Positions 10,307 to 39,114 of a stretch of DNA of 41,228 bases are shown piece after piece. This DNA comes from a virus. The translations under genes were made by a program, and so were the position numbers. Location of the stretch: IMG/VR virus record IMGVR_UViG_3300025156_000011, positions 1 to 41,228 of that record. One strand, written 5' to 3'. Position 1 is the first letter of the stretch, and each line of letters begins with the position of its first letter. Below the pieces are notes generated by a model. That model searched no databases. It saw only the letters and a program-made list of their open reading frames with translations, and had not been told where the DNA came from.

Positions 10307-10875
10307 AATCTCTCTCCTTCCACGCCGGCCTCAATTGCAGCTTCCCACAACTCCTTGAAAAGGCCGGAGCTAAACATATCATCAAGTGCTGGCTGTAGGA
10401 ACGGCCGAGCCTTTATCTGCATTAACCTCATGAAAGGGCTGACCCAAACGGGAAAGGGGAACGGCGGGCCAAAGTACCCAAAGGCGTGGGTCTGCATCCT
10501 TATATGCCCCTTCACTGACTGGGCTTTCGTCAACCCAAATTCATGGACATTGGCATAGGGAACTTTCGGATGCCCTCCAACACCGGAGCCAAAGTCAGCT
10601 ATCAACTTTCCCCCGTAGAACCTTGCATCCGTCCTCCCTATCGAGGCCCGCAATCTCCCACTGCGGGAGTGCAGCCTGTTAGGGTCGAGAGGGATGTTCC
10701 TCGCAAACCTGCTTCCTGAGAGACCCGCAATGTACCAGCTTTTCGCTCTGTCCACCGCAAAGTCAAGAGACTTGTTAAGTGCAACTTTCATGTTATGTCT
10801 GATGGTGCGGTTTGCAAGCTTCAGGTTCCTGATAATCTTTCTTGTTGTAAACGTCGGCTCAAGTTTTATCTTCAT
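10303..10875 (-). CDS. HK97 gp10-like neck / head-tail joining protein
   Basis: 190 residues, basic. The sequence DRAKSWYIAGLSGSRFARNIPLD then RLHSRSGRLRASIGRTDARFYGGKLIADFGSGVGG and YANVHEFG is characteristic of the HK97 gp10 / minor tail protein Z group (SGRLRxSI and YAxxHEFG motifs). Such proteins act at the neck during tail completion or joining. Its ATG overlaps the upstream stop as TAATG and its stop overlaps the next ATG as ATGA. Confidence 0.75.
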   Translation of the reverse strand: MKIKLEPTFTTRKIIRNLKLANRTIRHNMKVALNKSLDFAVDRAKSWYIAGLSGSRFARNIPLDPNRLHSRSGRLRASIGRTDARFYGGKLIADFGSGVGGHPKVPYANVHEFGLTKAQSVKGHIRMQTHAFGYFGPPFPFPVWVSPFMRLMQIKARPFLQPALDDMFSSGLFKELWEAAIEAGVEGERL

Positions 10876-11189
10876 TAGTAGCTAAACGCTGCCTCTATAT
10901 GATGGAAATTTCCCTTCCTATCAAGGAATCTGTCAAACGCAATTATGGGGTAGTCTTCTCCGTCGATCTCAACAAAGCAATCCGTGAGGTCAACATCGGA
11001 GAAGAGGAAGAAGAGGCCCCGTGGTACGGAAAGTTCATTTGTTATAGATCCTACTCGACGCTGAGCCTCGACGTCTGTTCCTTCGAGCCAAACGTCGTAG
11101 TCGCCAATCTCACTCTTCCCGAATGACCCAGAGCCTGTGCTCGTCTTCCTCTTTAAGGTTACTCTTGCGTTGGTGAAACCCACTTCCAC
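10875..11189 (-). CDS. Head closure / head-tail stopper-like protein
   Basis: 104 residues, beta-rich. Fits the small head-closure proteins (SPP1 gp16 or HK97 gp9 type) by size, by the pattern DCFVEIDGEDYPIIAFDRFLDRKGNFHHIEAAF and by its place between the connector and gp10-like genes. Two GTG codons, 11189 and 11183, are possible starts; the second is better spaced from GGAGAGG. It overlaps the upstream connector gene by about 30 bp. Family membership is inferred from synteny. Confidence 0.6.
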   Translation of the reverse strand: MEVGFTNARVTLKRKTSTGSGSFGKSEIGDYDVWLEGTDVEAQRRVGSITNELSVPRGLFFLFSDVDLTDCFVEIDGEDYPIIAFDRFLDRKGNFHHIEAAFSY

Positions 11190-11488
11190 CTCTCCACGTC
11201 GTAGTTGTCGATGTCATCAGGATCAGCTGCCAAGGAGCCTGCGCCAACAACGGAGCAGTACTCCTTGTACAGCCTATCGTATTTCTCGAACTTAGCGGAG
11301 AGCTCCTCGTACATCCTCCCCATGCGGTAGGTTGGGAGGAACTTTTTACGGAGAATGTCAAAGACCTTCATCCCAGCATACTTGACTTCGTCGTCATCAT
11401 AGTTGCTGAGGATGGCAGTCTTCTCCGTATCACTAAGCTCATCGAGGGCTTCACTTCCAACTTCAAGAATAAGTGTCAACTCATCCAT
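11159..11488 (-). CDS. Head-tail connector / adaptor protein (gp15/gp6-like)
   Basis: 109 residues, mostly alpha-helical and acidic at the start (LSDTEKTAILSNYDDDEVKYAGMKVFDILRKKFLP). Small helical proteins directly after the major capsid gene usually form the adaptor ring under the portal. No ribosome site is seen; its ATG lies 2 bp after the capsid stop, so it probably depends on ribosomes finishing the capsid gene. The call is from position and composition only. Confidence 0.55.
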   Translation of the reverse strand: MDELTLILEVGSEALDELSDTEKTAILSNYDDDEVKYAGMKVFDILRKKFLPTYRMGRMYEELSAKFEKYDRLYKEYCSVVGAGSLAADPDDIDNYDVERWKWVSPTQE

Positions 11489-11490
11489 GA

Positions 11491-12429
11491 TTAACTCGTA
11501 AGGTTGTAAGCGTAAACTCCAAGGTCAGTTGCCAACACCACAAGCTGGGACTTCACTGATGCCTCGATACGGAGGGCGTCGTTGAGGTGTGGCATCGGGA
11601 TTCTTCTGGTGATGATGTTGTTTCCGCCACGGCCCTTGTAGGTGATGTGGTATGCTGCTGCTGGCTTAAACTTACTTGGTCTATCAGGGACATAGTACAG
11701 CAGCATAGAGCCGTTGACCATGTAGTCAGTACCACCGCTGTTGATGGCGTTCGCAATGTAAATCTTGTCAAGCTCGAACAACTTTGCCAAAAGGCCGACC
11801 GTGACGACCTTGTCGTTTGTTGTCTTCATTCTATTCATGATGTGAGTGTTGCCTTTGAGGGCTCGGAAGACATCAGCGGCGATGATTGCTCTGTTGGGTG
11901 TGAATCCGGTGACTTTCTCGATTTCCTCTACCCAGGTCATCACCTTGTCGACAGGATCGACGTCACTTACACCTGAGGTCTTTGCATCCCACTTGGACGC
12001 TGTTTCATTGTGGTCTGTCCCCCATACGCCCGTTGTGAGGATGGAGTTTACCACGTTCTGCAAGAGCACCCTTCGGAGTCGCTGCATCACAAAGTCAACT
12101 GCATCGTTCACGGGGTCGAAGGGGTTGTCGTACTCGTTTGCATCGTCTTTGGTGATGTCATAGTGGAAGGCGAACTCTTCGAGGGTGTAGAGCTGCTTAT
12201 CAACCTCGTATCCTTCCCCCACACTTTCGGTCGCTCCGATCCTCTTATAGTCGTTTACCGTTCCAATGCGAATCCAGTCAGCCTTGTTGTACTTTGCGAT
12301 GTATCCAGAAAGCTGCCTGGAGTTTACCTTAGGGAATACTTGGAAAGCATCAAATTCATTATCCAACAAATACTTGTTCGCCACGTTGGAGACGAACTTT
12401 GGTCTTATCTGATCGTACCAGTGTGCCAT
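11491..12429 (-). CDS. Major capsid protein
   Basis: 312 residues. It sits right after the decoration-like gene and protease/scaffold gene, has the strongest ribosome site of the module (AAAGGAGGTAGATA before ATG) and a typical capsid length. It starts with AHWYDQIRPKFVSNVANKYLLDN and has FPKVNSRQLSGYIAKYNKADWIRIG, a pattern of HK97-fold capsid proteins of the major capsid protein E kind. The middle part has TGFTPNRAIIAADVFRALKGN, a stretch often conserved in these proteins. It forms the icosahedral shell. No N-terminal delta domain is present, in keeping with a separate scaffold. Confidence 0.85.
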   Translation of the reverse strand: MAHWYDQIRPKFVSNVANKYLLDNEFDAFQVFPKVNSRQLSGYIAKYNKADWIRIGTVNDYKRIGATESVGEGYEVDKQLYTLEEFAFHYDITKDDANEYDNPFDPVNDAVDFVMQRLRRVLLQNVVNSILTTGVWGTDHNETASKWDAKTSGVSDVDPVDKVMTWVEEIEKVTGFTPNRAIIAADVFRALKGNTHIMNRMKTTNDKVVTVGLLAKLFELDKIYIANAINSGGTDYMVNGSMLLYYVPDRPSKFKPAAAYHITYKGRGGNNIITRRIPMPHLNDALRIEASVKSQLVVLATDLGVYAYNLTS

Positions 12430-12442
12430 TATCTACCTCCTT

Positions 12443-12793
12443 TTATCCGTACAGAAGAACCTTGATTGTGCCTGTTCCGGAAGACTTAGCTTCTTTTGCA
12501 ATTGCCCTGATGATGTGGGAGCCGATCGTTGCTTTCACAAGGCGTCCATCAGCAGCTCCGGTCAGGGGGTCCTCAACAGCGATTGCACTTGAAGCATTGA
12601 CTTCAGCTTCGCACTCTCCGCTGATGATTATCTCGCTGGCCTCACCTGCTGGTCTCCCCTGGGAGACGATGCCGTAGACAAAGTCCCCAGTAGACGCAGT
12701 CAACACTCCATCAAGTCCAACTGCAAACCCTTCTTTATCCTCCAAGGAGGCAGACGTATTTACTACGCTTGTCTTTCTTACATTCTTCTCCAT
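12443..12793 (-). CDS. Capsid decoration-like protein (DUF2190-like)
   Basis: 116 residues with low aromatic content and a Gly/Ser/Ala-rich beta pattern: EDKEGFAVGLDGVLTASTGDFVYGIVSQGRPAGEASEIIISG and the closing GTIKVLLYG. Small proteins of this type between the protease/scaffold and the major capsid gene (lambda D position) bind the outer capsid surface. GAGGAGGAAGTAAT precedes its ATG. The family name is a pattern-based guess; the position is strong support. Confidence 0.65.
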   Translation of the reverse strand: MEKNVRKTSVVNTSASLEDKEGFAVGLDGVLTASTGDFVYGIVSQGRPAGEASEIIISGECEAEVNASSAIAVEDPLTGAADGRLVKATIGSHIIRAIAKEAKSSGTGTIKVLLYG

Positions 12794-19177: not shown

Positions 19178-20288
19178 GGGCATCCCCCAGGTCTGAGAGC
19201 AGCTCAAGGAGTTCTTTGAACTGGTCTCTTGTTATTTCTGTGTGAAAAGTGCGGATGAGGTCTGCAAGAGGGAGGCGCCCTCCCCTTGCGCTCAACAACT
19301 GCACTGTCTTGTATGCGTAATGTGCTAGCTTGTTTGGAGACGAAAGGATAAAGGCGATGCGCATCTTCTTCTCGATTCCATCAAACATCTCCACAGAGGT
19401 CTCAATGTCGCTGACATCCACAACCAACCTCTTGTCTGCGAGAGCTAGCAGAGCTGCGATCTTGAGAACATGGGTCTTGACTTTGCGCTCCTGATAGGCA
19501 ACGAGGCGGTGGTCCTGGGAGGCGTCGATCTCCTGTGAGATATACCAGTCTCTATAGAAGTCCTCTGCTGCCCTGCTTATCTCGATTTCACTGTAAAGGT
19601 CTCCCATCCACAACAGATGCTCGATGAGCCTTTCCCTTGCTTTGCGCTGTGCGTCTGTAAGGGAAGGCGAGGGCTCCTTTCCTCGTTTCTTGTCCTCGTA
19701 GATAATGATCGTGCGGGCAAGGAAGCCGGTGGAGTTCATGTCAGAGACCACGTTTTCCCCGAACCACTCAGGCACGGCTGCTCCGATCAAGTTGAAATAG
19801 GGGTTTGTGACCTCGAAGACTCCAGCGTTCTTTGTCTTGTAAATGAGGACGTCGTCCTTGTCCCAAATGTTCACAAGGAACTTCACCATGTCCACACCGG
19901 AGGCGAGGAGCACGTTTAGCTCAGAGGCGACGTATGTAATGGAGGAGTGCCTAAACATCTTCCCCTTGACCTCGATCTGTTTTTCAAGCTCACACATCTC
20001 CATTATTATTTTTTCCTTGAGGACTGAGTCCTCGAAGACATTGTATCCAGCTTCCTTGAGGAGCCTCATCCCGATGGAGAGGGATGTGGACTTCGCACAG
20101 ACACCTGGAGGTGCCACGAGGACAACGTACAAGTTGAGGAAGAGCTTGAAGAACCCTCGGTCGATCCACAACCGCTTCTCCGCTGCGCCCGCAAGGGTGG
20201 ACATTGCCACCCAGAGGTGCATGACCTCCGGCGTCTCGTTTCCTTCCGTGTAAAAAAGGTAGTCTTCTACAAACTTCGGGTATTTCAT
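19134..20288 (-). CDS. DUF3987-like ATPase, replication associated
   Basis: 384 residues. The start (YPKFVEDYLFYTEGNETPEVMHLWVAMSTLAGA) and LNLYVVLVAPPGVCAKST match the DUF3987 group of phage and plasmid primase/helicase-associated ATPases. The P-loop reads APPGVCAKST (59-68): the usual Gly before Lys-Ser is Ala here, so ATP binding may be altered. The C-terminal end resembles a small winged helix. It is coupled to the polymerase gene by ATGA and probably acts in replication initiation or fork progression. Confidence 0.65.
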   Translation of the reverse strand: MKYPKFVEDYLFYTEGNETPEVMHLWVAMSTLAGAAEKRLWIDRGFFKLFLNLYVVLVAPPGVCAKSTSLSIGMRLLKEAGYNVFEDSVLKEKIIMEMCELEKQIEVKGKMFRHSSITYVASELNVLLASGVDMVKFLVNIWDKDDVLIYKTKNAGVFEVTNPYFNLIGAAVPEWFGENVVSDMNSTGFLARTIIIYEDKKRGKEPSPSLTDAQRKARERLIEHLLWMGDLYSEIEISRAAEDFYRDWYISQEIDASQDHRLVAYQERKVKTHVLKIAALLALADKRLVVDVSDIETSVEMFDGIEKKMRIAFILSSPNKLAHYAYKTVQLLSARGGRLPLADLIRTFHTEITRDQFKELLELLSDLGDAHVEVKEGKKYLVAE

Positions 20289-22603
20289 ACCTTGAGCTCA
20301 TTGTAGACTTTTTCTATATTGTTCAAGTCTTTGACCTCTTTGAGCGTGCCCCAGGAGTAGCCGAGCTCGAAATCGAGGGGCACGACGAATGTGAGGCCGT
20401 TGACCGTGATCGGGACTTCAACCAGCTTCTTCATTGCATACATGCACCTTATGATGGTTTCAAGGTCATCGTCTACTTGACAGAGGATAGAGTCGTAGAC
20501 TGAGAGGCGAAACTCCCAGGAAGGGAGGTCCTCTTCGTAAATGCGTATCAACCCCTCGTTGAGGTAGTCTGCAGCAGTGGACTGGGGTTCTGCAGCGATG
20601 GCCTCTCTGTACGTCTTGTCGTTGAGGGGCCCAAAGAACTGGATTACTCGCCCGAAGACTGTGCGGATCACCCTTTCCCTCTTGACTTGCCTCTCTACCC
20701 GCTGTTGCCACTCCCTCAAACCAGGACGAATCTCGTAGTACCTTGCTTGGAGCTCCGCAGCCTCTCTTTCGGAGCAACCGAGGATAGCAGCCATTAGGCG
20801 CTTCCCTAGGCGGTAATGGCTTCCGTGCGCTATGCGTTTTGCTGTGTAGCGGTGAGTAGCTTTGTCAACTTTGTCGTAGGGGATGTGGAAGAGCATAGCT
20901 GCTGTCTCTGTGTGAAGGTCTGTCTCATCGAACTTTCGCAACCACTCCTCGTTTCCGCTAAGCGCAGCGACGATGCGGGCCTCCACTTGGGAGAGGTCAG
21001 CCTGAATGAAGATTTTGTCCCCATCAGCCTTGTAAAAGGTGCGGGTTTCTTTAGGGATGTTTAGCAAGTTTTTCCCTGAGCCCGTGATGCTTTCTGAAGA
21101 CGCAAACCTGCCGGTGTAAGTGCCATGGATCTTCAGCGCCGTCCGTATCCTTATGTCAGGGTCGTACTTGAGGTTGTAGAAGTCTCGCTTCTTCTTTGTT
21201 TCCCTGAGCTTTCTTATGAGACCAATGTGCAGCTTGAAGGGTGTCGGCATCCTCTCCAACTTCTGCAACTTCTCATCATTTGTCGTGACCTTCCCATGTT
21301 TCTTTTGCACGGGGAGCTGCCAGTCCTTGTAGATGAGTTTCTTAAGCTGAACGTGGGAGTTCGTGTTGACATCGCCTATCGTTTGCTCTTTGATTGTTTC
21401 AAGGACTTCGATTGCCCGCTCATTTTTCTTGCGGAACTCTTCAATGGCGTACAAGTCGAGCTTTGTGCCCCGAACCATAGCGAAGAGGCAGGGGCGGATG
21501 AGAGACATCATGCGGTTGTAAGCCTTGCGGGTGCCCCACTCATCTATCTCTCGTTGTTGAACCTCCATTATCTCATAGGTAAGGCAGCAGTCCTTCCCAC
21601 AGTAGATGTAGAGGGAGTCCCAGTCAACAGCGCCCCTCTTCACATCCTTCAGATAGTCCTTGACGTCTTCGCCTTCCTTCAAGTCCTTCCAGTAGGGCTC
21701 GTTCGTGTAGATGGAGGCACAGAAAGCTAGGGACTTGAGGAGCGTAGGGTAGATTGCGTGCTGGGCCAGCATGGTATCGCAGTAGATGTTATTGTTGAGG
21801 ATTTTGTAGTAGTAAGCGTTGTGCATACAGTCAAAGAGGGCGTTGTGGAAGACCTTGGGTGTAGAGGAGGCGCAGAAGCGGGAGAGCTGGCGGAGGACAA
21901 TTGGCTGGCGGAGGAGCTCCTTGGAAAGGACAAAGGCTTCTTTCTTGGAGGTTGCCATGCCATAGGCAACCATTACTGGCCCAGTTGTCTCGATGTCGCA
22001 CACCACAGGAGAGGGGTAGTCTATGAGGTCGTGGAGGAGCTTCAAAGCCTCAGTTTCGTTCGTGACGGTGCAGATGTTGCGCTCAGGATAAAGAATCTCA
22101 GGGAATTTGGACTCACGAGCAGCCTTCTTCAAATCAAGGATGCAGATAGGCTCGAAGCGCCCGTTTCCCCTTATGATGTTCCCTGGATGGATGATGGGGA
22201 GGACTTTGAGACCTGGGACAAGGGTGCAAGGGAGAATGGCACCACGGTACTTTGTAATTTGAGGGCGGTTCGTGAGGACGTTCAGCGCCTTTGCACCTAC
22301 AGCGATGATGAGGTTGAGACCTTCGGCCTTCAGTCGCTCCAGGTCCTCGGCCAACTGCCTTCGGCCCTCAGCGATCACCTCCTGGGGCAGGGTGTCGTAT
22401 CTGTTCTTGAACGGACGCTTGTGGACGGTGTTCGTCACGAAGCACTCGTGCCACTTGAGTCCAGCGAAACGGAACCACTTCCGAAGGATTTGCCCCTCGT
22501 ATCCGATGAAGGGCTTGCCCCTACGGTCTTCCTCTTCTCCAGGCGCCTCGCCGACGACGCAAATCTTAGCTGGGTTTTGTGGGACCTGTTGGATTAGGCG
22601 CAT
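20285..22603 (-). CDS. Fusion of uracil-DNA glycosylase-like domain and family A DNA polymerase
   Basis: 772 residues. Residues 14-145 match the UDG superfamily: VVGEAPGEEEDRRGKPFIG, VTNTVHKRP and IIHPGNIIR; the four-Cys cluster of family 4 enzymes is not evident. From about 200 follows a 3'-5' exonuclease (DIETTG 203-208, FHNALFD, YCGKDCC) and a polymerase. Motif A is ADLSQVEAR (D536), motif B runs from R585 through K589 to Y597, and motif C is VYDS (D704). The position equal to E. coli Pol I F762 is His (H593), and the motif C Glu is Ser. It is the main replicase candidate. ATG at 22603 with GAGGAG upstream. Confidence 0.9.
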   Translation of the reverse strand: MRLIQQVPQNPAKICVVGEAPGEEEDRRGKPFIGYEGQILRKWFRFAGLKWHECFVTNTVHKRPFKNRYDTLPQEVIAEGRRQLAEDLERLKAEGLNLIIAVGAKALNVLTNRPQITKYRGAILPCTLVPGLKVLPIIHPGNIIRGNGRFEPICILDLKKAARESKFPEILYPERNICTVTNETEALKLLHDLIDYPSPVVCDIETTGPVMVAYGMATSKKEAFVLSKELLRQPIVLRQLSRFCASSTPKVFHNALFDCMHNAYYYKILNNNIYCDTMLAQHAIYPTLLKSLAFCASIYTNEPYWKDLKEGEDVKDYLKDVKRGAVDWDSLYIYCGKDCCLTYEIMEVQQREIDEWGTRKAYNRMMSLIRPCLFAMVRGTKLDLYAIEEFRKKNERAIEVLETIKEQTIGDVNTNSHVQLKKLIYKDWQLPVQKKHGKVTTNDEKLQKLERMPTPFKLHIGLIRKLRETKKKRDFYNLKYDPDIRIRTALKIHGTYTGRFASSESITGSGKNLLNIPKETRTFYKADGDKIFIQADLSQVEARIVAALSGNEEWLRKFDETDLHTETAAMLFHIPYDKVDKATHRYTAKRIAHGSHYRLGKRLMAAILGCSEREAAELQARYYEIRPGLREWQQRVERQVKRERVIRTVFGRVIQFFGPLNDKTYREAIAAEPQSTAADYLNEGLIRIYEEDLPSWEFRLSVYDSILCQVDDDLETIIRCMYAMKKLVEVPITVNGLTFVVPLDFELGYSWGTLKEVKDLNNIEKVYNELKV

Positions 22604-23868
22604 TTTTTCTCCTCGATGTAAGCAATTGTTGCTGAGATGCTTTTGTTGTAATGACGTTCGAGCTTCTCACAACCGATGAACTGCCTGTTGGTGTCGTAAC
22701 ACGCTCGGATAGTGGAGCCACTCCCGCAAAAGACGTCGAGGACGGTGTCGCCTGGGGAGGAGAATGTCTGAATGATGTCGATGATGAGGGCCTCCGGCTT
22801 TTGAGCAGCGTGAAAGCGCTTGCCTGCTGGAGGAGGTGGGTAGGTGAAGATGTTTGAGCGTCCTTGTTTGGTGAGGCGAGCGTCAGGGGTAGTGTATGCG
22901 TACAGGGCGATTTCGGCGGCGCACCCAACACGGAGGGTTGATTGAATTGATCGCCCCGTTGCCCCCGATTTTACCCATATCAACGGCACCCTTGGAACGT
23001 AGAACCCTGCACGTTCAGCCATGACACATACGGCCTCATACAATTGATATGACGTCCATAAAACCATGTACCGCCCGTCACGGAGGACACGGCGAAAATG
23101 GGGCATACATGCCTTCAGCAGGGCGACGATGTCAGCCTGCTCGTCTTCGTATGCTTCCTCCGGAGAGGCAACAACATCATCCAAGTTGATGCCATACGGT
23201 GGATCAGTGAGTACTAGATCCACCGAGGCATCGTCGAGGGTGGAGAGGAAGGAGACGGCATCCCCTAAGCGGTAGTTCGCCAGAAGGCCCTCGAAGTCAA
23301 CTTTAGCTTTCGCAGCCTTCGCTTTCTCAACTGCACCGAGTATCTTCTTTTTCTCCTCAGCATCCATCTTGCGGACAGCCTCGCTCACAGAGGTTGCGTC
23401 CTTGACAAGCTCCTCGTTGTCAGCGATCTTCAGGAGCCGGCTCACCATAGCGGGATCTTTGCCCAGGAGCTTTGCTGTGTCCTTCACAGTCCAACCGCCA
23501 GTGTGTCCTGGGACGGGGCGTCCCTTCTCTTCGACGCCCCTCTCATGGATGGCTTTGACCAGCCGAGCGATTTCGACGGGCTTCAGGTCTGAGCGTCGGA
23601 TGTTCTCTTCGAGCTGGGCCACGAGGTCGTCGATACCCTCCCTCAAGATGAAGTGCTTTCCCTCCTCCAGGTGGGTTAATCCAAGGTACTCGGTGAGGGC
23701 AATGAAGCGACTGCGGCCTGCCCTTACGATGTAGGAGTCCCCGACCTTCTCCACGAGGATCGGCTGTAAGAGCCCGACGTTCTTGATGGAGAGAGCCAGG
23801 TCTCCAATTCCTTCACGCTCTTCTCTGAAGTCGCTTTCGAAGATAAATTGCTCAGCTGGTACACGCAT
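22594..23868 (-). CDS. ParB-like domain fused to N6/N4 DNA methyltransferase
   Basis: 424 residues. Residues 1-75 form a ParB-type nuclease-like domain (ILVEKVGDSYIVRAGRSRFIAL). Residues 95-150 contain a KorB/ParB-like helix-turn-helix (WTVKDTAKLLGKDPAMVSRLLKIA). From about 195 follows a methyltransferase with TDPPYG (221-226) before FCGSGST near the C-terminus, the beta-class order. The domains suggest a DNA-binding front end that directs adenine N6 or cytosine N4 methylation. A likely use is protection of phage DNA from host restriction. It overlaps the polymerase gene by 10 bp. No cognate restriction gene is visible. Confidence 0.85.
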   Translation of the reverse strand: MRVPAEQFIFESDFREEREGIGDLALSIKNVGLLQPILVEKVGDSYIVRAGRSRFIALTEYLGLTHLEEGKHFILREGIDDLVAQLEENIRRSDLKPVEIARLVKAIHERGVEEKGRPVPGHTGGWTVKDTAKLLGKDPAMVSRLLKIADNEELVKDATSVSEAVRKMDAEEKKKILGAVEKAKAAKAKVDFEGLLANYRLGDAVSFLSTLDDASVDLVLTDPPYGINLDDVVASPEEAYEDEQADIVALLKACMPHFRRVLRDGRYMVLWTSYQLYEAVCVMAERAGFYVPRVPLIWVKSGATGRSIQSTLRVGCAAEIALYAYTTPDARLTKQGRSNIFTYPPPPAGKRFHAAQKPEALIIDIIQTFSSPGDTVLDVFCGSGSTIRACYDTNRQFIGCEKLERHYNKSISATIAYIEEKKCA

Positions 23869-26795: not shown

Positions 26796-26854
26796 AAAAA
26801 TCCTCCTTTAAAATTTGTTTTTGGGGGTTCTCCCCGTTCCGATTTGTTAACGGT

Positions 26855-26891
26855 GAGAGGGTGGGCGTTCGCACCCTCTCAGGAGCGCTCC
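26855..26891. other. Hairpin and palindrome at the distal end of the TIGR array
   Basis: A perfect 9-bp inverted repeat, GAGAGGGTG-N8-CACCCTCTC (26855-26880), is followed one base later by the 10-bp palindrome GGAGCGCTCC (26882-26891). On the array transcript these lie about 30-65 bases beyond the last unit. There is no U-tract, so a simple intrinsic terminator is unlikely; RNA processing, 3' protection or protein binding are possible. The rest of 26796-26918 holds a small GGGG/CCCC hairpin and the next gene's leader. Confidence 0.5.
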
Positions 26892-26918: not shown

Positions 26919-27459
26919 TGACTCACTTGCCTAGACTGGTTTCCTTAGCGCTCGTGGTTCACTTGGAACCTTTGGTTTTCTTGAATGGTTTGGTTCACTC
27001 CATTTCCCTGGTCTCCTTGTTGACAATGATTCACTCAGCGGCCTTGGTTTCCTTCATGAGCGTGGTTCGCTTCTGATAGGTAGTTTTCTTTTCCTCAATG
27101 ACTCACTCTCAGCCCAAGGGTTTCTGTCCTGACATAGTTCGCTTTTTGCTCGTGGGTTTCTTTTGTTTGTTGATTCACTTTTCAAAAATGGTTTCCTTGT
27201 TGACCCTGATTCACTTGCAAATTATGGTTTCTTTGGTGGCAATGGTTCACTTTTCGTCCGTGGGTTTCCTCTTCGTTTTTGATTCACTCTTATAAGATGA
27301 GCTCCTTACTATGTCTGATTCACTCTTACAGAATGGATTTCTTAGATTGTGTGATTCACTTATGCGGAGTGGTTTCCTTGTTTGCGATGATTCACTTCGT
27401 AATTTTGGTTTCCTCCTGGACATTGATTCACTCCTAATCCTTAGCTTCCTCGATTTTCT
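26919..27459 (-). repeat. TIGR array: 15 tandem 36-bp units with paired 9-nt spacers
   Basis: Fifteen units abut each other, all 36 bp except one of 37 (27243-27279). On the plus strand each reads TGATTCACT-N9-TGGTTTCCT-N9; in the transcript sense AGTGAATCA and AGGAAACCA alternate with variable 9-mers. This matches the TIGR design: dual-guide 36-nt tigRNAs. Plus-strand spacer pairs from 26919 on: TGCCTAGAC/TAGCGCTCG, TGGAACCTT/TGAATGGTT, CCATTTCCC/TGTTGACAA, CAGCGGCCT/TCATGAGCG, TCTGATAGG/TTTCCTCAA, CTCAGCCCA/GTCCTGACA, TTTTGCTCG/TTTGTTTGT, TTTCAAAAA/TGTTGACCC, TGCAAATTA/TGGTGGCAA, TTTCGTCCG/TCTTCGTTTT, CTTATAAGA/TACTATGTC, CTTACAGAA/TAGATTGTG, TATGCGGAG/TGTTTGCGA, TCGTAATTT/CCTGGACAT, CCTAATCCT/CGATTTTCT. 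Units near the nuclease gene are best conserved. Frames on either strand are broken by stops or the 37-bp unit, so it is not a repeat protein gene. Confidence 0.9.
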
Positions 27460-27462
27460 TGG

Positions 27463-28404
27463 TTAGTAAACCCACCCCCTTTCTTCAGGCATAATCATCC
27501 TCTCGTGGCCTAGATGCGCTACGGGATAAACTGGGTCTGTTGGCAATCCAGCGATCGTCCGCCCTACATACCACCAGTCAGCGAGAAAGTGCTTCATTAT
27601 CGCTCGCATGGCTGTGCCGTGACGGTGCGAAGGCTTCGTCTCACACCAAGGCTTCTCAACGAGCTTCCCTTGAGTGTTCCTTGTCTTGACAATGCGACAA
27701 CTGTTCTCAAGCCGCTTTTTCACTCTGTCGTAGACCTTGCGATAGGGCCCTCGGCTCTTGACTTGGGAGTCTGCAAGGGTGTAGAGGGCCGTTCGAAGGG
27801 TCTTGTTTCCGCCGGAGGCTTCGCCCTTCGTGTACCTCTCATGAGAGGCGCAGTGGAGTCCAGCGTACTTCCACAAGGAAGACGCATGTTTTGCTTTTTC
27901 AAGCCGGATGTACACCAAGCAGAAGGCAACCGTCATAGGCCCCACGCCTCGCACTCCAAGAGCAGCCTTTGCCAAAGGGGAGTCAATGGACTTCACGAAC
28001 TTCTTCACAGCCCTGCTCCTCTCCCTCAACTTCAACTCAACCCCTCGGAGCTGGGCCTCGAGCCAGGCGACGGTGTCGGGGTTGAGGGAGTCAGTTTGGC
28101 GCTTGTAAGCGAGTAGCTGGTTTGCGAACTTGTTGCGCAACTTCAGGATCTGCTGGCGGTCGTCAACTAGGCACTTTAGCTCATCGAGGTCGGCAGGGCG
28201 GATGACAAGGTTGCCGTGACGCTGCATGTGGGCGACGGGGTGGACGACTCTGGTGTTCTCGTTCGTGTAGATTCCGCCTTGCGCCTTTGGAGTGATACGG
28301 TCGGTGTCAAAGAGGGCCGTCCACTCCTCTAGCAAGACGTTTGAGAGAGCGCATTCGCCGTTCTGCCTTTCTCTGACCTTCTTTTTGAGAGCCTCTTTTG
28401 CCAT
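27463..28404 (-). CDS. tasH: TasH-like RNA-guided nuclease: HNH domain plus Nop/IS110-like domain
   Basis: 313 residues; ATG at 28404 with AAAGGAGAAGTC before it. Residues 15-65 are HNH-like: C18, D35-R36 (in place of the usual D-H), GG at 43-44, N50, H59 and H63. Residues 66-145 are helical. From 150 follows an IS116/IS110 C-terminal (Transposase_20-like) domain: VRGVGPMTVAFCLVYI, SSLWKYAGLHC, GGNKTLRTALYTLADS and YRKVYDRVKKRLE. This domain is related to the Nop domain of box C/D snoRNPs. There is no DEDD/RuvC N-terminal domain as in true IS110 transposases. Together with the adjoining array this is the TIGR-TasH arrangement: RNA-guided DNA binding and probably cleavage. The replaced first His leaves cleavage unproven. 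Confidence 0.87.
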   Translation of the reverse strand: MAKEALKKKVRERQNGECALSNVLLEEWTALFDTDRITPKAQGGIYTNENTRVVHPVAHMQRHGNLVIRPADLDELKCLVDDRQQILKLRNKFANQLLAYKRQTDSLNPDTVAWLEAQLRGVELKLRERSRAVKKFVKSIDSPLAKAALGVRGVGPMTVAFCLVYIRLEKAKHASSLWKYAGLHCASHERYTKGEASGGNKTLRTALYTLADSQVKSRGPYRKVYDRVKKRLENSCRIVKTRNTQGKLVEKPWCETKPSHRHGTAMRAIMKHFLADWWYVGRTIAGLPTDPVYPVAHLGHERMIMPEERGWVY

Positions 28405-31924: not shown

Positions 31925-32695
31925 TCACACTCTAGCTAGGTAGCTCCAATCAGTCGTCATTACCTTTGCTATCATCATCTCCATTCCTTCTTCAAAGGAC
32001 TCCGCCACAGAGCGTTTGCGTCCCCAGAGGGACTCTTTCGACCGGCTGACAACTGCACGCTTCAAGTTAAAATCAGTGATTCCACAGGAAGAGCAGACCT
32101 CAACAACTGCCTCTTCGAGTTCCGCTACCTTCTTTCCACGCCTCCTCCTCTCTTCGACGGCCTCCTCCAAAGGGGCGTCCACGAAGTCCTTATCGAGGAG
32201 CTTCACCACCGTCTCGACGAGGGACGGCGACCGGAGGTTGTACTCCATGTAGGAGAAGGCGATTGTCAGGAGATAGGACTCGTATCCGCAGGAGCAGGCG
32301 AGTTCCTTTTCCTCCATGCTTGGCACCTCTGCGAGTTTGTGCATGTAGAGGCTATGGAGTTTCGTTGCCTTGTCCTTGATGTTGTCTCCCTTTTCAATGT
32401 TGAAGATAATGGGGAGCTCTCTCACCCAGCGAGGGGCGACAACGCAAGGGACTTCGACGTCCCCCTGGGTTTTGTCTAGGCCAGCGAGGCGGTGTTGGCC
32501 GTCCACAACCTCGTAGGTGCCATCCTCTCCAGGGACGACAAGCAGGGGGATGAGGAAGCCGTAGAAGATGCTCCCGCTTAGCTTGTTCACCAGCGTCACC
32601 GACAAGTTTCGCTGGAAGGGCGAGTTTTTGAGTAGGTGCCTTGGGATGAGGCGAAACTCCAGTTCTACGCCTTGCCTAGGTTCTTTAAACTTCAT
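31925..32695 (-). CDS. ParB-like nuclease-fold protein
   Basis: 256 residues from the ATG at 32695 (AAAGGAGGCACAA before it). Residues 15-110 form a ParB/Srx-fold domain: RHLLKNSPFQRN, FLIPLLVVPGEDGTYEVVDGQHRLAGL (DGQHRLAG at 65-72). The C-terminal 150 residues are helical and charged with Cys pairs (CSCG, CSSCG). Some ParB-fold proteins bind or hydrolyse CTP, others act as nucleases or DNA-site readers. This is the second ParB-type protein in the window; the other is fused to a methyltransferase. Role unknown. Confidence 0.75.
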   Translation of the reverse strand: MKFKEPRQGVELEFRLIPRHLLKNSPFQRNLSVTLVNKLSGSIFYGFLIPLLVVPGEDGTYEVVDGQHRLAGLDKTQGDVEVPCVVAPRWVRELPIIFNIEKGDNIKDKATKLHSLYMHKLAEVPSMEEKELACSCGYESYLLTIAFSYMEYNLRSPSLVETVVKLLDKDFVDAPLEEAVEERRRRGKKVAELEEAVVEVCSSCGITDFNLKRAVVSRSKESLWGRKRSVAESFEEGMEMMIAKVMTTDWSYLARV

Positions 32696-32729
32696 TTGTG
32701 CCTCCTTTCTTCTCACGTTCATACATGCT

Positions 32730-38931: not shown

Positions 38932-39114
38932 GTTATTAGGTTATTGCAATATGCTAATATTAGGTTATTGACGAATTGAGATAGTAGCATGTGGTGATAA
39001 GTCAATAGTCTAATATTATGATATTGTAAGATTGTAATATTAGAATATTGTAAAATCGGAATGTTGGAATATCGCCATGTTGCGACATTAGAGGATTGTA
39101 ATATTAGATTATTG
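38932..39114. repeat. AT-rich region with five 15-16 bp direct repeats
   Basis: Copies of consensus TAATATTAKRWTATTG at 38955-38970, 39011-39026, 39035-39050 and 39099-39114, plus GTTATTAGGTTATTG at 38932-38946. A minus-strand frame through it encodes only the low-complexity translation of the repeats and has no ribosome site. Such AT-rich iterated blocks often serve as unwinding regions at origins or as binding arrays. Confidence 0.6.
39000..39005 (-). promoter_or_regulatory. Candidate -35 box for the early operon (weak)
   Basis: TTGACT on the minus strand with TATCTC 16 bases downstream (38983-38978). The -10 box is poor, so this is only a suggestion; the leader from here to the first gene would be about 160 bases and include the hairpins. 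Confidence 0.25.

What the first reader, a model, noticed from the sequence alone, without database searches (positions are those of the whole stretch)
26919..27459. Thirty distinct 9-nt spacers in a strict 9+9+9+9 layout
Columns 1-9 (TGATTCACT) and 19-27 (TGGTTTCCT) are conserved, whereas columns 10-18 and 28-36 differ in every unit. No spacer is repeated exactly, although two begin TGTTGAC (units 3 and 8). Diversified, non-duplicated short spacers imply active acquisition or diversification of guides, a process not understood for such arrays.
Basis: seen in the sequence. Interest (0 to 1): 0.8.

Follow-up and report, generated by a model that had tools for sequence, protein, structure and literature searches.

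The report
Phage TIGR guide array with TasH
The repeat block is a TIGR array, a known kind of paired-guide RNA array, encoded by a phage next to its guided DNA-cutting enzyme TasH; comparing it with related phages shows that its guides are swapped as whole paired units, which bears on the open question of how such arrays change.

Summary
Confirmed with corrections. At 26919-27459 there are 15 tandem units with variable short spacers. The array is read on the minus strand, directly downstream of a 313-aa HNH+Nop protein (27463-28404), which is TasH: 51.5% identical to the tested SpTasH of Salicola phage CGphi29 and E 1.8e-98 to solved TasH structures. The true layout is 10-nt repeat + 8-nt spacer, twice, as in SpTIGR, not 9+9+9+9; one unit is 37 nt. 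So this is a new member of TIGR-Tas (PMC12045711). That paper calls array renewal an enigma.

Over 18 separate sister pairs (flanks 87-98%), 45 of about 220 units per side are shared, nearly always as whole spacerA-loop-spacerB modules (45 whole, 4 half). Differences gather in edge repeats at the borders of replaced units (0.59 vs 0.08 per 10 nt in loops). Turnover is internal, not leader-polar. Internal duplications occur, two of them out of phase, creating new spacer pairs. Capture from foreign DNA is not shown: no targets were found, self-targeting is at chance level, and no capture gene is evident. Turnover is supported; acquisition is not.

The parts
26919..27459 (-). TIGR array: 15 units (RNA order W0 = 27424-27459 to W14 = 26919-26954), each spacer A (8) + loop repeat AAGRAAACCA (10) + spacer B (8) + edge repeat RAGTGAAYCA (10); unit W5 (27243-27279) is 37 nt
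   Evidence: unit table and entropies; same layout as SpTIGR, edge AAGCGAGCCA, loop AAGACAACCA, 8-nt spacers
27460..27469 (-). degenerate first edge repeat TTACTAACCA, containing the tasH stop codon TAA (27463-27465)
   Evidence: sequence; the same overlap of stop codon and first edge repeat is seen in L002, L008 and L015
27463..28404 (-). tasH, 313 aa: N-terminal HNH nuclease motif (D33, R36, G44, Y46, N50, P56, H59, H63 invariant in 14 TasH proteins) and C-terminal Nop/IS110-type RNA-binding region
   Evidence: Pfam Transposase_20; 51.5% identity over 98% to CGphi29 TasH; PDB TasH 21kl E 1.8e-98; alignment A1
26854..26881 (-). 10-bp hairpin downstream of the array in the direction of transcription, without a U-run; probable end or processing structure of the array transcript (inference)
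   Evidence: fold z -2.8; identical in the sister phage L001; no terminator called there
26991..27062 (-). units W11 and W12, spacers identical in the sister phage L001 (its units L9 and L10)
27099..27170 (-). units W8 (one spacer mismatch) and W9 (spacers identical), shared with L001 units L6 and L7
27280..27351 (-). units W3 (spacers identical) and W4 (one spacer mismatch), shared with L001 units L2 and L3
26919..26954 (-). unit W14: same spacer A as L001 unit L14, different spacer B (the one half-unit change in this pair)
27063..27098 (-). unit W10: both spacers differ from the unit at the same place in L001 (L8) although neighbours W9 and W11 are kept, i.e. interior replacement

Best explanation
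This is a phage-borne TIGR-TasH system. tasH and the array lie on the same strand and are probably co-transcribed; the array transcript is cut within the edge repeats into 36-nt tigRNAs, each with two 8-nt guides. A TasH dimer loads one tigRNA and cuts double-stranded DNA where spacer A pairs with one strand and spacer B with the adjacent stretch of the other strand; the likely prey is DNA of competing mobile elements (inferred). The guide repertoire is renewed within the array, module by module: the heritable unit is spacerA-loop-spacerB, units are gained, lost and replaced at interior positions, and the joints lie in the edge repeats. Shown here: identity of the protein, array anatomy, turnover, module integrity, edge-repeat joints, internal duplications. 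Taken from the literature on SpTasH and TaTasR: processing to 36 nt, paired-strand targeting, HNH-dependent cutting. Inferred: co-transcription, activity of this copy, the prey, and recombination as the route of turnover.
For: TasH homology with invariant HNH residues; array layout identical in kind to SpTIGR; published function (PMC12045711). Empty site: a syntenic relative (L017) has the same flanking helicase and 126-aa genes 119 nt apart with no tasH and no array, and in CGphi29 the cassette sits between the major head protein and a head-tail adaptor, so it is a portable cassette. Turnover: the sister L001 keeps 6 of 14 compared units, collinear; 18 separate sister pairs with flanks 87-98% identical share 45 units of 217/222, with 4 half-only matches. 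Co-inheritance of A and B in aligned sisters: both kept 66, both changed 126, one kept 9. Repeat differences per 10 nt: loops in kept units 0.083, edges between kept neighbours 0.135, edges at the border of a changed unit 0.586, p 1e-4 and 2e-7. Within-array near-duplicate guides: 24 pairs against 0.66 expected.
Against: No RNA or cutting data for this copy. Only one sister of the window itself was found; most other sister pairs carry Tas proteins that match TasH only in the Nop part, so the general pattern rests largely on relatives. The p-values treat units as independent. No target was found for any guide, and the statistical link expected between the abutting ends of A and B in a contiguous target was not seen (z 1.0).
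Confidence: 0.88

Rival explanations
1. Spacers are captured from foreign DNA, as in CRISPR adaptation, and inserted as new units at edge repeats; the turnover seen is the result of ongoing capture and loss.
For: Wholly new spacer pairs appear between close relatives, both spacers at once; inserted blocks of whole units are seen, e.g. L11-L12 of the sister and two units in L013.
Against: No targets found in own genome, sister, related phages or 1.2 Mb of TIGR-carrying viral contigs beyond chance; two shared guides hit viral contigs at about the chance number; no Cas1/Cas2-like gene in the cassette, and the nearby exonuclease and annealing protein are also present in the relative without the cassette; no end-polarity; no junction signal between A and B.
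Confidence: 0.35
2. Arrays are mosaics: units are exchanged between co-infecting relatives by homologous recombination and multiplied by slippage, so that guide content changes without any capture step.
For: Whole-module inheritance with joints in edge repeats; identical units shared by phages whose flanks are only 75-79% alike (L043/L050 with L082) or do not match at all in the stretches compared (L070/L092); internal duplicates and out-of-phase duplications (L007 units 3-5, L103 units 9-11, chimeric unit in L075).
Against: Most changed units have no copy elsewhere in the 152 arrays, including all those private to the window, so the donor pool must be large and unsampled, or another source must exist.
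Confidence: 0.45
3. An IS110-type transposable element with a tandem repeat beside it, not a guide system.
For: The only Pfam match is Transposase_20 of IS110-type transposases, and PHROGs calls it a transposase.
Against: HNH instead of the DEDD catalytic domain, far stronger match to TasH (E 1.8e-98) than to the other Nop protein found in the PDB (E 1.4e-11), and a dual-repeat array of SpTIGR layout directly downstream.
Confidence: 0.02
4. The array is a relic or a neutral repeat, with spacers drifting freely.
For: One 37-nt unit and some decayed repeats (e.g. GAGGAAGCTA, AAGCGAACTA).
Against: tasH is intact and conserved; in the sister pair loops of kept units show no change in 60 nt while flanks differ by 5-7%; spacers are either kept or wholly different, which neutral point drift at that divergence would not give.
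Confidence: 0.04

Closest known systems
SpTIGR-TasH of Salicola phage CGphi29 (HQ634153; Faure et al., PMC12045711)
   Same: TasH with 51.5% identity over 98% of the length; array directly downstream on the same strand; 10-nt edge and loop repeats ending in CA; 8-nt spacers; 36-nt units with one 37-nt unit; carried by a tailed phage
   Different: Repeat sequences differ (AAGTGAATCA/AAGGAAACCA here, AAGCGAGCCA/AAGACAACCA there); 15 units against about 11 (parsed repeats); inserted between a helicase and a 126-aa gene, not in the head-gene region; no U-run terminator directly after the last repeat
TIGR-TasR (TaTIGR) and TIGR-TasA
   Same: Nop protein plus dual-repeat array; paired guides; 36-nt unit
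   Different: HNH instead of RuvC (TasR) or no nuclease (TasA); 8-nt instead of 9-nt spacers; repeat ends differ from the UG...CCA boxes of TasR
CRISPR arrays
   Same: Tandem repeats with variable guide spacers that turn over faster than the genome
   Different: Two alternating 10-nt repeats, paired 8-nt spacers, no Cas1/Cas2, turnover at interior positions without leader polarity
IS110 transposases with bridge RNA
   Same: Shared Nop-type RNA-binding domain (Pfam Transposase_20)
   Different: HNH in place of DEDD, tandem array in place of one bridge RNA

Membership tests
TIGR-Tas | Protein with a Nop/IS110-type RNA-binding domain of the Tas clade | tested here: met
   Transposase_20 match; full-length match to solved TasH, E 1.8e-98
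TIGR-Tas | Adjacent array of two distinct alternating 8-12-nt repeats with short (8-12 nt) spacers, about 36 nt per unit | tested here: met
   10+8+10+8, 15 units
TIGR-Tas | Edge and loop repeats share their end motifs (box C/box D analogues) | tested here: met
   Both repeats begin RAG and end YCA
TIGR-Tas | Array begins and ends with truncated edge repeats, followed by a rho-independent terminator | tested here: inconclusive
   Degenerate first edge repeat overlapping the stop codon; the last edge repeat is full length, and the downstream hairpin lacks a U-run
TIGR-Tas | Processing to 36-nt tigRNAs bound by Tas | not testable with these tools
   needs RNA sequencing
TIGR-Tas | Tandem-spacer targeting of both DNA strands | not testable with these tools
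   no natural targets identified; needs biochemistry
TasH subtype | N-terminal HNH nuclease with conserved catalytic residues | tested here: met
   D33, R36, N50, H59, H63 invariant in 14 TasH proteins and aligned with SpTasH
CRISPR-Cas | Single repeat type with Cas proteins | tested here: not met
   two alternating repeats; no Cas effector or Cas1/Cas2 among the ten genes around the array searched with Pfam, nor in the PADLOC and PHROGs searches
IS110 transposon | DEDD catalytic domain with Nop-type RNA-binding domain and a bridge RNA | tested here: not met
   the N-terminal part aligns with the HNH region of TasH and is followed by a dual-repeat array, not one bridge RNA

The most novel reading that the evidence does not exclude
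TIGR arrays renew their guides without capturing foreign DNA: edge repeats act as joints at which whole spacerA-loop-spacerB modules are exchanged, duplicated and lost between phage genomes, and out-of-phase 36-nt duplications with both joints inside loop repeats make new A/B pairs, a combinatorial source of new guides unlike CRISPR adaptation.
Probability: 0.3. Interest if true: 0.8.

Novelty: new member of a known kind. Interest (0 to 1): 0.5.

Why it matters
The system itself is a second phage lineage of TIGR-TasH with a clean array, an intact HNH and a close sister. [quoted passage not shown] The data show what the unit of change is (the paired-spacer module), where the joints are (edge repeats), that change is internal, not leader-polar, and that it is much faster than change in the surrounding genome. 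This makes the question of where guides come from directly testable with sister phages or with one evolving phage population.

Tried and rejected
Targets: 16-mers spacerA + revcomp(spacerB), gaps 0-2, against own contigs (0 exact, 1 at one mismatch, 14 at two; permuted pairs 0, 0.5, 10.9), against all loci (3 exact, about 0.7 expected from the number of positions, other geometries 2 and 2), and window guides against the sister and related phages (nothing at 0-1 mismatch). Two guides shared by both sisters were scanned over IMG/VR: 43 and 82 stretches, about what 16-mers with gaps 0-2 would give by chance in a collection of tens of Gb (my estimate of its size); the first set contains a cluster of about eleven near-identical phage contigs, i.e. 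not independent. Junction statistics between the abutting ends of spacers A and B: no clear signal. Point hypermutation of spacers: rejected as the main mode, because between contigs shared guides are either identical to within one base or at chance. Leader-polar growth: not seen. A link between the array and the exonuclease/Sak4-like recombination genes beside it: rejected as a system component, since the relative without the cassette has the same genes. TasH in cellular genomes: one genome-contig scan gave only two remote matches. Structure prediction was not run, because solved homologues match the full length.

Full report
1. Observation. Read on the minus strand, 26919-27459 is exactly 15 units of spacer A - loop repeat (consensus AAGGAAACCA) - spacer B - edge repeat (consensus AAGTGAATCA). 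Mean column entropy is 1.82 and 1.89 bits in the spacers and 0.56 and 0.34 bits in loop and edge. In random sequences of the same composition the longest chain of alternating repeats was 3, against 30 here. All 30 spacers differ, and their near-matches are no more frequent than in column-permuted spacers.

2. Context. The array begins in the stop codon of a 313-aa gene on the same strand (27463-28404). Its product matches Pfam Transposase_20 weakly, TasH of Salicola phage CGphi29 at 51.5% identity over 98%, and the sequence of solved TasH structures (21kl, 9w26 and others) at E 1.8e-98. The HNH motif residues are invariant in 14 TasH proteins from viral contigs. CGphi29 is the source of the experimentally tested SpTIGR system, whose array has the same 10+8+10+8 layout with other repeat sequences. 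In the published work TIGR arrays are processed to 36-nt tigRNAs and the two spacers pair with opposite strands of the target; [quoted passage not shown] The window is a virus record of 41,228 bases with portal, terminase, tail and replication genes.

3. A portable cassette. A syntenic relative (L017/G006, 39-49% amino-acid identity in the neighbouring genes) has the same helicase and 126-aa genes 119 nt apart with neither tasH nor array. In CGphi29 the cassette lies between the major head protein and a head-tail adaptor gene. The phage recombination genes next to the array here (PD-(D/E)XK exonuclease, Sak4-like annealing protein) are present in the relative without the cassette, so they are phage genes and not part of the system.

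4. Comparison with a sister. IMGVR_UViG_3300021468_000003 carries a TasH 96% identical, with flanks 93-95% identical. Its array shares six units with the window in the same order (W3, W4, W8, W9, W11, W12), with two spacer mismatches in 96 nt and no loop change in 60 nt. Other units are wholly different at the same place (W10), inserted (two units before its last two), missing, or, once, changed in one spacer only (W14). Neutral point change at 5-7% cannot turn whole 8-mers over while leaving neighbours intact.

5. Generality. Pattern scans of IMG/VR gave 150 loci, 152 distinct arrays of seven or more parsed repeats and 1,333 guides of this repeat lineage. In 18 sister pairs in which no array is used twice (flanks 87-98% identical), 45 units of 217/222 are shared with both spacers, and only 4 matches concern one spacer. 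In aligned sisters both spacers are kept in 66 units, both changed in 126, and one kept in 9 (pairs overlap there). Loop repeats inside kept units differ by 0.083 per 10 nt, edge repeats between two kept units by 0.135, and edge repeats bordering a changed unit by 0.586 (one-sided p 1e-4 against inner edges, 2e-7 against loops; units treated as independent). The heritable module is therefore spacerA-loop-spacerB and the joints are edge repeats. Kept units are spread along the array. Pairs at 99.7-99.9% flank identity keep nearly all units of the shorter array.

6. Where new units come from. Within arrays, near-duplicate guides are far above chance (24 pairs with at most one mismatch per spacer, expected 0.66), and 32 of 108 arrays with five or more guides show some internal duplication. 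In L007 units 3-5 and L103 units 9-11 read (a,b), (c,b), (c,d), which is what a 36-nt tandem duplication with both joints in loop repeats gives; the middle unit is a new pair. L075 unit 8 joins spacer A of unit 3 with spacer B of unit 4. A few identical units occur in phages with distant or unmatched flanks. Most changed units, including those private to the window, have no source in the sample. Capture from foreign DNA remains possible, but target searches gave nothing above chance, and a test for contiguity of the two half-targets was inconclusive.

7. Reading. This is a TIGR-TasH system and not a new kind. The library holds no paper on TIGR array dynamics beyond the statement that the mechanism is unknown; subscription journals and preprints are not covered. 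Limits: metagenomic contigs, one sister for the window itself, most other sister pairs with Tas proteins related to TasH only in the Nop part, a repeat model drawn from this lineage, and no expression data.

Noticed in passing
window 20285-22603 (-): 772-aa protein with an N-terminal uracil-DNA glycosylase domain (residues 11-149) fused to a 3'-5' exonuclease and family A DNA polymerase.
   Followed up: no
window 22594-23868 (-): 424-aa fusion of a ParB N-terminal/KorB-like part with an N6/N4 DNA methylase.
   Followed up: no
window 31925-32722 (-): Weak ParB-like match, about 3.5 kb from tasH and not adjacent to it; the TIGR-Tas paper describes ParB-like genes in operons with tasA, not tasH.
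   Followed up: no
window 39011-39114: AT-rich tandem repeat of 8/16/24-nt period (TAATATTG-like) in a gene-poor end of the record.
   Followed up: no
L091 (IMGVR_UViG_3300005573_000236), minus strand: TIGR array with 98 parsed repeats (about 49 units), well above the 5-15 units given as typical in the literature; L065 has 76 repeats.
   Followed up: no
L051 (IMGVR_UViG_3300037793_000039) and L009: Many short TIGR arrays on the same strand along one contig (11 in 12.3 kb in L051, 7 in L009) rather than one array.
   Followed up: no
window 27460-27469; L002, L008, L015: The tasH stop codon lies inside the first degenerate edge repeat (TAACCA, TAATCA, TGAACCA, TTAACCA), a recurring joint of gene and array.
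   Followed up: partly
L003 (IMGVR_UViG_3300033149_002604), about 10852-12500: TIGR units split into several small arrays between genes, two of them followed by GC-rich hairpins beginning in the edge repeat.
   Followed up: no
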